From positions 1-46,059 of IMG/VR virus record IMGVR_UViG_3300050015_000237: a DNA stretch of 46,059 nucleotides; one strand, written 5' to 3'. A model generated the notes under the pieces. It was not told the origin of the DNA. It made no database searches and was given only the letters and a program-made list of their open reading frames with translations. Positions 4,363 through 46,059 of the stretch are shown piece by piece; position 1 is the first letter of the stretch; every line of letters starts with the position of its first letter. This DNA comes from a virus. The translations under genes and the position numbers were made by a program.

Positions 4363-5358
4363 ATGTGAGTTTTACAAACCTCTGATTTCGCTGATATAAC
4401 CAATCACTTGATCATGATAGACGAAGTGTTTAACGATGCTCAGCAACAGGCAGTCGATAAGCAAGTAGGTTTACAAATCTTCGATACAAAACAAAACAAC
4501 CACAGGAACGATACAGTCAAACTTAATCATGGATTAGGTGGAGTAACGTATATTCCTGAGAACGCTGATTATCCTGAAGCAACAGGAGCAGAAGGCGACA
4601 AGATTTCGTTTACAAAGTATAAATATGGAGTCAATGTTATCATAACATTGGAGAACAGAATATACGATGAATATGACGAAATTGAGACTAATGTAAGGAC
4701 AGTAGTAGATGAAGGATATAACAAGATCGATCAGTCATTGGCTGACATTTTGACTAACGGATTCTCTGCAACATCTTATACAGACGTATTCGGACAGACT
4801 GCATCAGCAGTATGACCAGATGGATTATGTTTGTTCCATGCAGCACACACAAACACAACTACATCAAATACTTACTCTAATATCATTACTGATTCTGGAG
4901 TAACTAATCCAGCATTCGCAAGAAGCGGAGTAGTTGAGACAAGAGTAAGAGGATTGAGATACAAAGATCCTCAGAATGTCATTAGACCTATCTACTACGA
5001 CACAATCTTAGTAGCACCTGAATTAGAAGACTTCGCTGATAGGACTATCAACTCAGTCCAGATAGCAGGAAGTGCTAATAACGACACTAATAGATACCTC
5101 AATGGAAAGATGAAGATCCAATCTTGGTCTAAGCTTTCTGTCAGAAGTGATGGAACAGACACAAGTGCTTATCGGTTCATGTATGATTCAAGTATGGTTA
5201 AGAAAACCCTCAAGGCTTTCTTCGCTAGATACCCTGAATTGTTACCTCCAGCAGAGTATGATCCTAATAAGAACTGGAATTACTTATTTCAATTCATCTA
5301 TTCAAGAGGCTTCTCACGAGCTCCTTACATTCAAGGAAGTAATTCAACGCTATCTTAA
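4363..5358 (+). CDS. Major capsid protein
   Basis: A 331-aa protein beginning MGVLQTSDFADITNHL, with TGA for Gly at codon 2 and again at VGPDG (4813). It has the look of HK97-fold capsid proteins: an alpha-helical N-terminal arm, an extended loop rich in polar residues, then VRGLRYKDPQNVIRPIYYDTI followed by LVAPELEDFADRTI, close to the LVVPPELE-type signature of many phage capsid proteins. Placed after the scaffold and decoration genes, it is the only mid-sized candidate for the capsid subunit. Reading TGA as stop would split it into two pieces. Confidence 0.85.
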
Positions 5359-20346: not shown

Positions 20347-22059
20347 ATGACAGAAATTTCAAAAAAAGTTTTAGACCAGATGTATAATGACTTCGATGCT
20401 ATACAGATGCCGAGAACGCCATACGCTTTGAAAGAAATGGTAATATGATCTCATTATACACCAGAACAATGCCGAGCACAAATGGTATTGGAGATGAATG
20501 TAGCATATTCAAATTTGCGTACAGCAAAATGTAATGCGAGATTGAAAGAGATCGAGATCAGCAAAATGAAAAGTAAAACCGAGAAACAAAAACTCGAAAA
20601 AGAACTCAAAGAGATAGAGCTTGAATCATTGAATCTCGCTCGCACATGAGCATTAAGAGAATTCACATTTCTATTCGGCTTGCGAAGTAAATGAAAAAAA
20701 CATTATACAAGAGATCAATTGAATAATGCAAGTCCAGAAGAATATCGCATAAGATTGGAAACACAAGCACAGCATGACATACTAAGCTCTTGAAAAATAA
20801 GTGTAGGTAATCTTGAATGATTACGTCAGATCAAACAGATAGATAAGTATGCAAATATGTTGAATATGAAACAACCTGCTTTGGTAGAATCTGGCATGGA
20901 TCCTATCGAAGAAAGATACCTCGAAGAATGACAATTGAAAGCAACTATCATTATCCCATCTGAGAAACCATTAGTAGATTGAACTCCCTTAACACAAGAT
21001 ATTATGTTGCCGACTAATGTAGAATTTAAGATACGCAATATCCATTCAGCACCAGTAGCAGAAAACTATTGTGCAGGCATAGAGATGGCAATCAAGGAGG
21101 GTTGTACCCACGTACTGACTTGTGAGGATGACCAGGTGCTTGAAGAGGATAGTATTATAAGGTTATTTGATTTCGCTCTAAAGAATCCTGATTGTTGTGT
21201 ATGAGCATATTATCTAAAGAAAGAGCCAGTAAAGAAATGAGTACATATCCACGTTGTTTGAGCTCATAGACAGTTCCTAGAAGATGATAATCAGATACAC
21301 GAAGTAAAGACGTTAGCTATGGGATTAACATTATACCCAGTAGAGATACTGAAAAAGGTTTGATACCCATATTGCAAGACTACTACACATTTATCACAGG
21401 ATAGTTACCTATCACAAAAGATAAGAGATTTATGATATAAACTTCTTGTGGATTGCTCAATAAAAATATGACATAAGGATAGAGTGACAGGTAAGATATT
21501 CTGAGAGGTTAAGAAACCATTACCTAAAGCTATGCAAGTACCAGAAGAGTTGGCAGGGATGTTGGAGTATGTTAAAGGCAAGAAAATGATATTAGAAATC
21601 GGTACGGCACTAGGTGGCACAATTCACCAGATGATGAAAGTAGCTGACCCTAAAGCTCATTTTGTATCAATAGATATGCCTGATTGACCATATTGAGGAG
21701 AGTTTGGACAACCCGATATAAAAGAGATGAGAAAGTGGTTGCAGGAAGGTCAGAAGTTGAGTGTGATAAGGTTTGATAGTAAGCATGAGTCCACGATAAA
21801 AGAGGTGAAGAAGATATTAGGTAAGAAAAAATTTGACTTCGCTCTTATAGACTGAGACCATACTTACGAAGGTGTAAAATGAGATTATGAGTTATATAAA
21901 TGATTTATAAATTGACCAATAGCTTTTCACGACATCGCTCACCATAATCAACTTGATGTATGAGTAGAGAGATTTTGGAACGAACTCAAAGGTAAGAAGA
22001 CAGAGATAATCAAAGACAGAAGCCAGTGACGAGCCTGAATATGAATTTTAGATACTTAA
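20347..22059 (+). CDS. Glycosyltransferase-methyltransferase fusion
   Basis: 570 aa. Residues 1-~200 are helical and highly charged, unlike an enzyme domain. Residues ~200-385 resemble a GT2-like glycosyltransferase: ATIIIPSEKP, ENYCAGIEMAIKEGCTHVLT then the metal-binding CEDDQVLEEDS, GYPYCKTTTHLSQDSYL. Residues ~400-560 are a class I SAM methyltransferase of the Methyltransf_24/cephalosporin-hydroxylase-like kind: MILEIGTALGGT, VSIDMPDG, FDFALIDGDHTYEGVKGDYE, IAFHDIAHH. It may modify a virion or host-surface glycan. It reads through without a stop, so the fusion looks genuine. Confidence 0.7.
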
Positions 22060-22368: not shown

Positions 22369-22578
22369 ATGTCTAGTTTTTGAACCCTAGATTGGTATGA
22401 TCTAGCAAAGTGATTGATTGTATCTGTACTTACTACAGTTCTATGAGGTATCTATGCTGTAGTCCAGACTTGATCCTTCCCCACCATCCCTGAGTGGAGA
22501 TCGATAGGACTAGCTGGAATTGGTGCATTGCTAGCGTACCTTATTAAAAATCTCTTTAGCTGACCTAAGCCAGCTTAA
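22369..22578 (+). CDS. Holin-like membrane protein
   Basis: 69 aa with two membrane segments (LAKGLIVSVLTTVLGGIYAV and SIGLAGIGALLAYLIKNLF) and a short charged tail, the usual shape of a class II holin. Five TGA glycines lie in or near the membrane helices. It partners with the preceding gene and lies upstream of a peptidase gene. Confidence 0.6.
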
Positions 22579-22652
22579 TGCTAGGAGTCCCTGTATTCCG
22601 ATGGTGGCTTACTGCAATGCTTATAATGCTTTATTTTATAATGGGAGCGTAA
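22578..22652 (+). CDS. Tiny membrane peptide ending at the IS border
   Basis: 24 aa, hydrophobic (MLGVPVFRWWLTAMLIMLYF), with ATG overlapping the previous stop. Its TAA falls where the tnpB element begins, so it may be a complete mini-holin partner or the remnant of a longer gene cut by the insertion. Confidence 0.4.
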   Translation: MLGVPVFRWWLTAMLIMLYFIMGA

Positions 22653-22654
22653 AA

Positions 22655-22677
22655 CACAATGGTCTTTAGCCGTTGTG
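22655..22677 (+). repeat. Left-end hairpin of tnpB element
   Basis: Eight-base arms CACAATGG and CCGTTGTG around TCTTTAG. It has the same loop as the right-end hairpin at 23982 and nearly the same stem, which links the two as the ends of one element. Confidence 0.75.
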
Positions 22678-22763
22678 ATGTAAGCGACCTTAGTGGTCAT
22701 TAAAATCTACTTGCATTTGGTCTGGAAATCTATATATTATTTGTGTGATGATAGTATATATGA

Positions 22764-22834
22764 AGTCCATACCGTGAGGCAGGGATATTATACAACAGTA
22801 TATTATCATCACAACCTGCTTTACTATATGGACT
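22764..22834 (+). promoter_or_regulatory. Nested inverted repeat upstream of tnpB
   Basis: Outer arms AGTCCATA/TATGGACT (22764-22771 and 22827-22834) enclose GCAGG/CCTGC and an AT-rich near-palindrome. It ends 8 bases before the tnpB ATG, so it could fold in the mRNA leader and limit TnpB synthesis. Confidence 0.45.
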
Positions 22835-22842
22835 TTTTGTAT

Positions 22843-23880
22843 ATGAAAACATTTCGCTTTAGATTAAAACCAAACAAGATACAAGAAGAAAAACTTGCAC
22901 AAAATTTCTGATGTGCGAGAATGATTTACAATCGGGGATTATGATTATCAAAAGAGAAATATCCTTGACGAGTGAACTTAGCAAACCAATTGAAAGAAAA
23001 GAAAAAAGAATTACCACGATTGAGAGATTGTTATTCACAAGTATTGCAACAATCATTGAAAAATTTAGATACAGCATTCCAAAGGTTCTTCAAAAAGAAA
23101 TCTAAGTATCCGAACTTCAAGAAGAAAAGTAATACACAATCAATGAGGTATCCACAATTTACAAGCATAACAGATACGCATATCAAACTACCAAAGATAT
23201 GAGAAATTAAATGTGTGTTCCATAGGGAATGCAAGGGTAAAATCAAATCAATGACTATCACTAAGACGGCTACTTGAAAATACTATGTGTCTATCCTCAC
23301 AGATTATACTGAACAGAAAACCAATGGTCAGTGAAGCGTAGGGATAGATGTAGGTATCAAAACATTTGCGGTATGTAGTGATGGACAACATTTTGAGAAC
23401 CCTAAGTACCTAAGGAAAGCAATGAGAAGACTAAAGAAACAACAAAGACGATTGAGCAGGAAACAAAAAGGTAGTGCAAACAAAACTAAACAAAGACTAA
23501 TTGTAGCAAGACTGCACGAGAAAGTATCAAATCAAAGACAAGACTTTCTCCATAAGACATCTACTATAATATCAAGACAATATGAAACCGTTTGTTTAGA
23601 AAAATTGAACATCAAGTGAATGCTTCAAAATCATTGTCTAGCACAATCAATATCAGATGTATGACGAGGTATGTTCAAGACAATGTTGCAATATAAGGCA
23701 ATAGTCAAAGAGATATGAACATTCCAGCCATCATCAAAAACTTGTAGTAATTGTTGAAACATAAAGAAAGAATTAAAACTATCAGACAGGACTTATCATT
23801 GCGAGGCTTGTTGAATGGATATGGATAGAGATTTGAATGCTTCTATCAATATCAAAGCAATGGCTACTGTGGAACTTTAG
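22843..23880 (+). CDS. tnpB: TnpB RNA-guided nuclease
   Basis: 345 aa, within the usual TnpB range. The N-terminus reads MKTFRFRLKPNKIQEEKLAQ. The RuvC-like active site is complete: D169 in SVGIDVGIKTFAV, E253 in CLEKLNIK and D-R-D-L-N-A at 328-333. The zinc finger is C301-x2-C304 and C320-x2-C323 (CSNCG, CEACG). About 16 glycines are TGA, including both knuckle glycines, so an active protein is made only in a UGA-Gly host. TnpB proteins cut DNA guided by omega RNA from the element's 3' end and help retain the element. It lies between holin and small genes. Confidence 0.93.
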
Positions 23881-24010
23881 AACTATATAGCAGTAGTGGT
23901 ATCGCAGGAAATGCGAGAACCGATAGGAAACTATCTACGCCTCTGGACAGTAAGTCAATAGACACTGGTTGAAGGAGGAAGCACAACCATCTTTAGTGGT
24001 TGTGTAGTTC
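23881..24010 (+). ncRNA. Probable omega RNA (reRNA) scaffold of TnpB
   Basis: The 130 bases between the tnpB stop and the right end fold well: CGCA-GGAAA-TGCG (23903-23915), GATAG-GAAA-CTATC (23922-23935, GNRA-type loop) and the right-end hairpin at 23982-24004. In related elements the guide RNA covers this region and its guide is the ~16-20 bases just outside the right end, here the beginning of the gene at 24016. The 5' limit probably lies inside tnpB. Inference from family knowledge and visible stems. Confidence 0.6.
23982..24004 (+). repeat. Right-end hairpin of tnpB element
   Basis: Perfect 8-bp stem CACAACCA/TGGTTGTG with loop TCTTTAG, identical to the loop of the left-end hairpin. Confidence 0.75.
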
Positions 24011-24015
24011 ACAGG

Positions 24016-24285
24016 ATGGCTAAATTGCTAAAGTACGTCTTTGTAGAGAGTAAGAGGGATAAGGGTGACTTCTATTGAGCCTTTACTGAATCTGATTATG
24101 CGAACCAGAAGGACACGATCAGAGCGACTAAAGAGGTAAGGAAAACAATCACTCTTGAAACAGCTCTAAAGATTCGTACACTCTTAGACGAGAAGAAACA
24201 TAAAGAGCTTATTTTACTTATAAAGTGAGAATTAGAAGATGTCCTCCACTGAGAGAAAGACAACGAAAACGAACAAGCGACTTAA
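24016..24285 (+). CDS. Small hypothetical protein beside tnpB
   Basis: 89 aa, helical and charged (MAKLLKYVFVESKRDKGDFY, TLETALKIRTLLDEKKHKEL). Its start codon lies about a dozen bases outside the IS right hairpin, so the transposon now supplies its leader and its 5' codons would serve as the omega RNA guide. Function unknown. Confidence 0.55.
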
Positions 24286-34254: not shown

Positions 34255-35745
34255 ATGTTAGAAAAACTCACATCGAAACAAGAAAAGCTGATAGTAAATG
34301 TCAGAGATAAATATCTCAAAGCATTCTTCTGATACAAGAAGATGGATAAGAAAGCAGTAGAGAAATGAATAAAAATGATGTATTGATTAGCTTGATTAAA
34401 GAAGCCTGAGATTATATATCTTCAATCCCCCTTAGGTGTTCAGTATTGTGCTAATTTATTGCAGTCAGTTAAAGTATGATGAGACCAAGTCAGAGACCAA
34501 GTCAGAGACCAAGTCTGAGACCAAGTCAGAGACCAAGTCCGAGCCCAAGTCAGAGCCCAAGTCCGAGCCCAAGTCAGAGCCCAAGTCAGAGCCCAAGTCA
34601 GAGACCAAGTCAGAGCCCAAGTCTGAGACCAAGTCTGAGACCAAGTCAGAGACCAAGTCAGAGACCAAGTCTGAGACCAAGTCTGAGACCAAGTCAGAGC
34701 CCAAGTCCGAGCCCAAGTCAGAGACCAAGTCTGAGACCAAGTCTGAGACCAAGTCTGAGACCAAGTCAGAGCCCAAGTCCGAGCCCAAGTCAGAGACCAA
34801 GTCCGAGCCCAAGTCAGAGCCCAAGTCTGAGACCAAGTCTGAGACCAAGTCTGAGACCAAGTCAGAGACCAAGTCCGAGCCCAAGTCAGAGCCCAAGTCA
34901 GAGCCCAAGTCTGAGCCCAAGTCTGAGACCAAGTCCGAGCCCAAGTCAGAGACCAAGTCTGAGACCAAGTCAGAGACCAAGTCAGAGTCCAAGTCAGAGA
35001 CCAAGTCCGAGCCCAAGTCAGAGACCAAGTCCGAGCCCAAGTCAGAGCCCAAGTCAGAGCCCAAGTCTGAGACCAAGTAAAAAAAAGTGATATGAAATTT
35101 TATGATCGGTGTTCTTATGGGGAATGCTATGATTTATCACGGGTAGGATTTTATGATTACTTCCAACAAATAGGACTCAAGATAAATAAAGACATAAAAA
35201 AAAGATTTAATATATTCAGAGATATGATATTATGATGAGTATTTACGATGCTACAATTCAAAAATGTATGTATAGTCTCAGAGAATCCAATAAAAATATG
35301 TAGAGATGAAAGGGATAGATTGCATAATGAAGAATGATTTGCTATTGAATTTAGGGATTGATATGTACTTAATTATCTACAATGAGTAAATATACCATAC
35401 GATATGTACGATAAGATAGTCAATGATAAGATGAAACCGCAAGATATATTCAAGATAGAGAATGCCGAATTAAGAAGAATAGCTTACGAATATATGGACA
35501 AGGCAAAGATGAAGAAGTTGAAAGATTATAAAGTATTAGATAAATCAAAGGATCAATACAATAATAAAATGGCTATTATAGAGTTTAAGGTAGATTGATT
35601 TGATAAACCCTTTAGATATTACCAATGTATTTGTCCTAGTTCTTGACGTGTATACTTTTTAGAAACAGAAGATATAACTTGTGAGAAAGCGAAAATGGCA
35701 TCTTTTTGATTGTCTAATAATATTTATTTTGATGTCGAAGCATAA
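34255..35745 (+). CDS. DUF6745-like protein with giant (D/A)QV(R/G) repeat
   Basis: 496 aa in one frame when TGA is Gly. Residues 1-76: LTSKQEKLIVNVRDKYLKAF then KPEIIYLQSPLGVQYCANLL, as in DUF6745-type proteins. Residues 77-275: about 50 copies of a 4-residue unit DQVR, AQVR or DQVG. Residues 276-496: YDRCSYGECYDLSRVGFYDY, VCIVSENPIKICRDERDRLH, GFAIEFRDGYVLNYLQGVNI, ENAELRRIAYEYMD and CICPSSGRVYFLET, again matching the family. Related proteins carry shorter x-Q-(L/V)-x repeats. Function of the family is unknown. In the other two frames the repeat gives false SETK or RPSQ reading frames. Confidence 0.8.
34483..35079 (+). repeat. 12-bp tandem repeat, about 50 units
   Basis: The unit is G-M-C-CAA-GTC-N-G-A (M = A or C; the 10th base A, C or T). 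Only two positions vary: the second base of codon 1 (Asp or Ala) and the first base of codon 4 (AGA/CGA Arg, TGA Gly). Unit length is a multiple of three, so copy-number change keeps the frame of the host gene. Confidence 0.95.
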
Positions 35746-45833: not shown

Positions 45834-46059
45834 ATGGCAACTAAAGAAGATATATTAAACAATAGTAAATCAAAGAAATCTGATCAGAACTACATCTTGG
45901 ATATAAAGAACCTGACGAACCAAGCTACCCAATGAGGAGTAGAGCCAGAAGATATGAAGTCATTATGATACGTTCTGGATAGATGGGCAAAGATGGATAG
46001 TAGACGCAAACAGGAAGAGCATAAACGGAGTACATTTGATATGCAATTCGACTCAGCGA
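45834..46059 (+). CDS. Portal protein (start; continues at position 2)
   Basis: ATG 45834 opens MATKEDILNNSKSKKSDQNY and runs off the window. From 45881 it repeats window positions 1-179 in the same frame, so the full gene is this piece (45834-45880) joined to 1-2011. A T-rich leader precedes the ATG. Confidence 0.85.
45881..46059 (+). repeat. Terminal overlap with window start
   Basis: 179 bases equal to positions 1-179 except for seven differences (at 19, 31, 37, 40, 46, 49 and 52), all synonymous third-codon changes; the last 127 bases are identical. It marks a circular or permuted molecule of 45,880 bp sampled from more than one variant. Confidence 0.9.

What the first reader, a model, noticed from the sequence alone, without database searches (positions are those of the whole stretch)
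22653..24010. Intact TnpB nuclease element in a recoded phage, with hairpin ends and probable omega RNA
TnpB has its D-E-D residues and both zinc knuckles, with ~16 TGA glycines. The hairpin ends share loop TCTTTAG, but no tnpA is present. The element is therefore adapted to the recoded host, yet needs a Y1 transposase from elsewhere. It lies between holin genes and the gene at 24016, so its omega RNA guide would match phage DNA.
Basis: partly seen in the sequence, partly recalled or inferred. Interest (0 to 1): 0.75.

Follow-up and report, generated by a model that had tools for sequence, protein, structure and literature searches.

The report
Recoded phage carrying a TnpB transposon
A phage whose genes use a rare genetic code carries a small transposon encoding TnpB, an RNA-guided DNA-cutting enzyme; the transposon is of an ordinary kind, but its gene is written in the same rare code (TGA as glycine, CGA/CGG as tryptophan), so it has probably lived in such hosts for a long time.

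Summary
A 345-aa TnpB (22843-23880) with D169/E253/D330 and four zinc cysteines lies between two subterminal hairpins with loop TCTTTAG, and no Y1 transposase is found in this near-complete phage contig. Corrections: there are 11 TGA glycines, not about 16. The right end is 24012|24013, fixed by a guide/cleavage pair (GAAG/TCAC) that covaries across relatives; an omega-RNA stem beside it also covaries. The left end is 22635-22640, after a TTNT target (probably TTTAT). The code is not plain table 25: in a 77-80% identical sister phage, CGA/CGG exchange with TGG 24 times and with an Arg codon once, so CGA and CGG mean Trp (table 37, Absconditabacteria); all five Trp codons of tnpB are CGA/CGG. 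Best reading: a tnpB-only IS200/IS605 element, mobile in trans through a TnpA like that of phage contig L152, which has near-identical ends. TnpB would cut only empty copies of this phage locus, retaining or spreading the element; its own copy lacks the target motif. No empty site was found and no activity was tested. A new member of a known kind; the recoding is the interesting part.

The parts
22635..24012 (+). Whole tnpB-only IS200/IS605-type element; left border uncertain between 22635, 22638 and 22640, right border firm
   Evidence: Guide/cleavage pairing rule and its covariation in relatives
22630..22639 (+). TTTATTTTAT: contains the left cleavage/target motif (TTNT; TTTAT at 22630-22634 or 22635-22639, ATTTT at 22633-22637), retained in the phage flank or the extreme left end
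   Evidence: Relatives insert 3' of TTAT with guide AAAA; spacing 16-20 nt in relatives
22651..22654 (+). Left guide AAAA (GL)
   Evidence: Position at the 5' foot of the left hairpin; pairs with TTNT by the IS608 rule
22655..22677 (+). Left-end hairpin, loop TCTTTAG, followed by ATGTAAGCGAC (22678-22688) shared with L152
22754..22844 (+). Leader hairpin that pairs part of the start codon; competing stem 22744-22758/22799-22813; probable repressor of read-through translation (inferred)
   Evidence: z -6.1 to -6.8; alternative fold
22843..23880 (+). tnpB, 345 aa, 11 TGA (Gly), 4 CGA and 1 CGG (Trp), no TGG
23863..24012 (+). Predicted omega RNA scaffold (5' end not fixed; overlaps the end of tnpB)
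   Evidence: Fold of 23860-24030 z -4.7; covarying stem
23940..23980 (+). k-turn-like 3' stem of the omega RNA: CCTC (23940-23943) pairs with GAGG (23975-23978)
   Evidence: 14 distinct 4-mers stay paired in relatives, 97% vs 70% in shuffles; sub-threshold RAGATH-18 match
23978..23981 (+). Right guide GAAG (GR)
   Evidence: Covaries with the right cleavage site
23982..24004 (+). Right-end hairpin, loop TCTTTAG
24009..24012 (+). Right cleavage site TCAC (CR), last bases of the element
24013..24032 (+). Predicted guide segment AGGATGGCTAAATTGCTAAA (phage flank, includes the start codon of the gene at 24016)
   Evidence: Follows from the right border and from ISDra2 guides; single occurrence

Best explanation
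A 1.37-1.38 kb tnpB-only insertion sequence of the IS200/IS605 family, inserted in a small-gene cluster of a phage whose host uses the Absconditabacteria genetic code. It has no tnpA but keeps the single-stranded end signals that a Y1 TnpA of the kind in phage contig L152 would read, so it could be moved in trans. Its transcript ends in an omega RNA whose last ~20 nt copy the phage sequence just outside the right end. TnpB with that RNA would cut a phage genome in which the site is empty, where the TTNT motif (probably TTTAT) directly precedes the target, and repair from an occupied copy would restore or spread the element. Shown here: gene, active-site residues, end signals, right border, conserved RNA stem, genetic code. 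Inferred: expression, cleavage, mobilisation in trans, the homing outcome, the host.
For: TnpB domains and residues, fold of TnpB; paired hairpins; GR/CR covariation 33/24/8/3; borders mapped in multi-copy relatives; L152 with the same ends plus a Y1 TnpA; covarying omega RNA stem; own site lacks the motif, no other target; CGA/CGG=Trp from 24 exchanges with TGG against 1 with Arg and 5/5 Trp codons of tnpB recoded. Retention and drive by TnpB shown for other elements: PMC8612924, PMC11870625.
Against: No empty site and no second copy found; a 5-residue deletion found in few relatives; no expression or cleavage data; left border open by 5 nt.
Confidence: 0.75

Rival explanations
1. Immobile, domesticated homing nuclease: the element no longer transposes and is kept because TnpB eliminates or converts co-infecting phages with an empty site.
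For: No tnpA in a near-complete genome; 25 of 34 related phage records have no Y1 match either; long residence under code 37.
Against: Both end signals keep exact guide/cleavage complementarity (left side TTNT/AAAA), which is expected only if a TnpA still acts or acted recently.
Confidence: 0.3
2. Decaying relic: recent insertion or leftover with a TnpB that no longer works.
For: 5-residue deletion next to a RuvC strand; strong leader hairpin over the start codon.
Against: Full frame through 11 TGA codons, all catalytic and zinc residues, high-confidence fold, preserved RNA stem.
Confidence: 0.15
3. TldR-like RNA-guided repressor: a nuclease-dead TnpB used by the phage for gene regulation.
For: Such proteins are phage-encoded elsewhere (PMC13418256, abstract); the guide covers a start codon.
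Against: RuvC residues complete, transposon ends kept, guide is simply the insertion flank.
Confidence: 0.03

Closest known systems
ISDra2 TnpB (Deinococcus radiodurans, IS200/IS605)
   Same: Best named natural relative in the PDB (E 1.5e-61), same fold, RNA overlapping the 3' end of tnpB and the right end
   Different: 345 vs 408 aa; no tnpA; TTNT (TTTAT) instead of TTGAT motif; code TGA=Gly, CGA/CGG=Trp
IS608 ends (Helicobacter pylori, IS200/IS605)
   Same: Subterminal hairpins, guide tetranucleotide at the 5' foot, cleavage sites read by pairing (PMC5934647)
   Different: AAAA/TTNT and GAAG/TCAC here, AAAG/TTAC and GAAT/TCAA in IS608; no tnpA here
Element in phage contig L152 (IMGVR_UViG_3300031551_000001)
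   Same: Left end GGAGCGTAAAA-hairpin-ATGTAAGCGAC and right end GAAG-hairpin-TAGTTCAC; TnpB 44% identical
   Different: Has a Y1 TnpA; standard genetic code
tnpB-only elements of cyanobacteria (e.g. L012, L017 Microcystis)
   Same: ~1.3 kb, tnpB only, TTAT target and AAAA left guide, 42-44% identical TnpB
   Different: Right end GAAT/TCAA; standard code; chromosomal
IS607 TnpB with RAGATH-18 RNA (ISFba1)
   Same: Sub-threshold resemblance of the last RNA stem (29.6 bits, gathering 44.9); same protein fold (8iaz)
   Different: No serine recombinase; IS200/IS605-type hairpin ends

Membership tests
IS200/IS605 family (tnpB-only, IS1341-like group) | TnpB with RuvC D-E-D and zinc cysteines | tested here: met
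IS200/IS605 family (tnpB-only, IS1341-like group) | Subterminal single-strand hairpins at both ends | tested here: met
IS200/IS605 family (tnpB-only, IS1341-like group) | Guide tetranucleotide complementary to the cleavage site, right end | tested here: met
   GAAG/TCAC, covarying in relatives
IS200/IS605 family (tnpB-only, IS1341-like group) | Guide tetranucleotide complementary to the cleavage site, left end | tested here: inconclusive
   AAAA fits TTNT at three spacings, 15, 17 and 20 nt
IS200/IS605 family (tnpB-only, IS1341-like group) | Insertion 3' of the target motif without duplication (empty site) | tested here: inconclusive
   No empty site found; borders of relatives fit
IS200/IS605 family, autonomous members | Y1 (HUH) TnpA | tested here: not met
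   No PF01797 match in the record; tnpB-only members lack it by definition
TnpB RNA-guided nucleases | RNA-guided, motif-dependent DNA cleavage | not testable with these tools
   Needs protein and RNA
IS607 / RAGATH-18 TnpB | Serine recombinase TnpA | tested here: not met
   No PF00239 match
IS607 / RAGATH-18 TnpB | RAGATH-18 RNA above the curated score | tested here: not met
   29.6 bits against 44.9
TldR | Inactivated RuvC site | tested here: not met
   Triad complete
Genetic code 37 (Absconditabacteria: TGA=Gly, CGA/CGG=Trp) | TGA stands at conserved Gly | tested here: met
   G23 86/86, G145 73/86 in tnpB; terminase G68, G139, G140, G439 in 6/6
Genetic code 37 (Absconditabacteria: TGA=Gly, CGA/CGG=Trp) | CGA and CGG stand at conserved Trp and exchange with TGG | tested here: met
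   24 exchanges with TGG vs 1 with Arg in L182; terminase CGG183 W in 6/6; TnpB CGA275 W in 77/86
Genetic code 37 (Absconditabacteria: TGA=Gly, CGA/CGG=Trp) | Host tRNAs that read CGA/CGG as Trp | not testable with these tools
   No tRNA in the phage; host genome not available

The most novel reading that the evidence does not exclude
An RNA-guided homing element confined by the genetic code: its mRNA gives working TnpB only where TGA means Gly and CGA/CGG mean Trp, so the drive can spread only among phages and other replicons of Absconditabacteria, with the code acting as its host-range lock.
Probability: 0.25. Interest if true: 0.55.

Novelty: new member of a known kind. Interest (0 to 1): 0.4.

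Why it matters
TnpB genes in phages are common (393 of 50,697 phage records match this TnpB). Less ordinary is a phage lineage, and a transposon in it, that uses a sense-codon reassignment (CGA/CGG to Trp) as well as TGA to Gly. The study of Absconditabacteria phages found in the library predicted genes with codes 11 and 25 only (PMC10746230), while the Trp reassignment was described for host genomes (PMC8629427). Proteins of such phages translated with table 25 carry wrong residues at conserved Trp positions, and a TnpB expressed from a table-25 design would be wrong at five sites. The end rules worked out here also give a definite, testable guide and target motif.

Tried and rejected
Exact search of IMG/VR for the right hairpin: none. 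Searches for related phages through terminase, the 570-aa gene 20347-22059 and the 24016 gene: none; through the 331-aa gene 4363-5358 one close sister (L182) was found but it does not cover the locus, and the 12 records found lack both flanking genes at the sensitivity used. RAGATH-18/IS607 membership rejected. Plain table 25 rejected. My first left border (22640, 15-nt spacer) was downgraded because relatives show 16-20 nt. A script for leader-fold statistics over all relatives timed out and was replaced by 14 single folds. Pfam bit scores alone were ambiguous for the code (with Trp: terminase -0.9, OrfB -2.1, zinc domain +4.3, HTH +2.3, Lin1244 +2.7 bits). A first script for the omega RNA stem failed and was replaced.

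Full report
WHAT WAS CHECKED. The window is a 46,059-base IMG/VR virus record. The frame 22843-23880 is open for 345 codons when TGA is read as an amino acid, with 11 TGA codons. Pfam finds the three TnpB domains HTH_OrfB_IS605, OrfB_IS605 and Cas12f1-like_TNB, and the best named natural relative in the PDB is ISDra2 TnpB (E 1.5e-61). D169, E253, D330, C301, C304, C320 and C323 are invariant in a 46-sequence alignment. An AlphaFold model built on that alignment has mean pLDDT 92 and matches the TnpB-RNA-DNA structures 8h1j, 8iaz and 8exa. The protein is 5-6 residues shorter after A286 than 159 of 168 relatives; in the model this only shortens the loop between helix 275-285 and strand 287-291. 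The count of about 16 TGA glycines was too high, although 16 is the number of all recoded codons once CGA/CGG are included.

THE CODE. CGA and CGG do not behave like arginine codons. In tnpB, CGA275 aligns with Trp in 77 of 86 relatives and CGA59 with Trp (40) or Phe (46), and tnpB has no TGG at all. In the phage terminase CGG183 aligns with Trp in 6 of 6 relatives and CGA238 in 3 of 6. The deciding test used a sister phage contig (L182, 18 kb, 77-80% identical DNA over most aligned stretches, same gene order): over 15 orthologous genes, a CGA/CGG codon in one phage is TGG in the other 24 times, an Arg codon once, another residue 4 times, and CGA/CGG in both 14 times. So this phage reads TGA as Gly and CGA/CGG as Trp, the code inferred for Absconditabacteria (PMC8629427; the NCBI table number 37 is my own knowledge). 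The host is most likely an Absconditabacterium; that is an inference from the code. All five Trp codons of tnpB are CGA/CGG against 42% in the rest of the phage (p about 0.013), so the gene has probably long been under this code.

THE ENDS. The hairpins at 22655-22677 and 23982-24004 share the loop TCTTTAG and are far beyond chance. In IS608 the cut sites are not read directly by the protein but by pairing with a guide tetranucleotide at the 5' foot of each hairpin (PMC5934647). At the right end this rule predicts guide GAAG (23978-23981) with cut site TCAC (24009-24012). Among relatives the fourth positions covary: GAAT/TCAA 33, GAAG/TCAC 24, GAAA/TCAT 8, GAAC/TCAG 3, against smaller numbers of unmatched pairs, part of which are false hairpins. 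GTAGTTCA is invariant in a 17-sequence alignment that includes the window (those sequences were picked by TAGTTCA, so this part is by construction), and independent copies of related elements stop matching right after this site. The right border 24012|24013 is therefore firm. At the left end the guide is AAAA (22651-22654). Multi-copy cyanobacterial relatives with mapped borders insert 3' of TTAT with guide AAAA, and a sister clade 3' of TCAT with guide GAAA, at 19-20 nt from the hairpin; viral relatives have 16-20 nt. Here TTTATTTTAT (22630-22639) offers TTTAT at 20 nt, ATTTT at 17 nt and TTTAT at 15 nt. I cannot choose without an empty site; the motif is TTNT in every case and TTTAT in two of three.

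WHERE IT SITS. The small ORF starting at 22578 is now 24 aa long. Removing the element from 22635 or 22638 would join it in frame to the gene at 24016 (shown for 22635); removing it from 22640 would not. So the insertion may have split one small membrane-protein gene, but this is a guess: an in-frame join arises by chance about one time in three. The gene before it (22369-22578) is hydrophobic and holin-like only by eye.

THE GUIDE RNA. The stretch 23860-24030 folds better than all 200 shuffles (z -4.7). Rfam's RAGATH-18, part of the guide RNA of IS607-type TnpB (PMC11061315), gives a sub-threshold match at 23940-23980. Independently, the outer 4-bp stem just before the right hairpin, CCTC/GAGG here, occurs in relatives as 14 different sequences that stay paired (97% of positions against 70% in shuffles; the partner was chosen as the best of a few candidates, and the shuffles were treated in the same way). 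The predicted guide is 24013-24032, AGGATGGCTAAATTGCTAAA, found once in the window and nowhere next to TTAT. The element's own copy has TCAC before it, so it should be spared; an empty allele would have TTNT before it and should be cut. This is the retention scheme proposed for ISDra2 (PMC8612924) and the plasmid gene drive shown for IS200/605 (PMC11870625). For this element it is inference.

TRANSPOSASE. No Y1 transposase and no serine recombinase is in the record, which is close to complete: its last 179 bases repeat its first 179 at 96%, and L182 bridges the junction. In 25 of 34 related phage records no Y1 match exists either, though many are fragments. But phage contig L152 has a Y1 TnpA (E 2e-34) between a left end GGAGCGTAAAA-hairpin-ATGTAAGCGAC and a right end GAAG-hairpin-TAGTTCAC, as here, with a 44% identical TnpB. 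Such a TnpA could move this element in trans. L152 reads with the standard code, so direct exchange with this host is not implied.

LEADER. Between the left end and tnpB lies a hairpin of -40 to -42 kcal/mol (z -6.1 to -6.8) that pairs part of the start codon, with a competing fold of -27 kcal/mol whose stem can form first during transcription. Weaker leader folds exist in relatives. A role in keeping read-through transcription of the surrounding phage genes from making TnpB is plausible from classical insertion sequences (own knowledge), but not tested.

VERDICT. A new member of a known kind.

Noticed in passing
1-179 and 45881-46059: The last 179 bases repeat the first 179 at 96% identity and sister contig L182 runs across the junction, so the contig is close to a complete, circularly permuted or terminally redundant genome although IMG/VR classes it as linear.
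   Followed up: yes
whole window; L182: The phage uses CGA and CGG as Trp in addition to TGA as Gly: 24 exchanges with TGG against 1 with Arg in orthologous codons.
   Followed up: yes
34255-35745: ORF with a long DQVRAQV-type repeat in which the first base of one codon switches between AGA, TGA and CGA, i.e. Arg, Gly and Trp in this code.
   Followed up: no
22744-22844: Very stable leader hairpin with a mutually exclusive alternative stem just before tnpB; looks like a switch or a guard against read-through transcription.
   Followed up: partly
L098:4180-4520 (minus strand): Right end of the same type (GAAG, TCTTTAG hairpin, TCAC) in a viral contig without a TnpB match by tblastn: perhaps an RNA-only or MITE-like derivative.
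   Followed up: partly
L098:4163-4269 (minus strand): Rfam family HgcC (RF00062) aligns, below its cut-off, with this right end including the CUUUAG hairpin and GGUCA; HgcC may be a TnpB right-end RNA.
   Followed up: no
23698-23700 (after TnpB A286): TnpB is 5-6 residues shorter here than 159 of 168 relatives, between a helix and a RuvC strand; effect on activity unknown.
   Followed up: partly
22578-22652 and 24016-24285: Two of the three possible left borders would make the small ORF at 22578 and the gene at 24016 one continuous frame, so the element may split a gene.
   Followed up: partly
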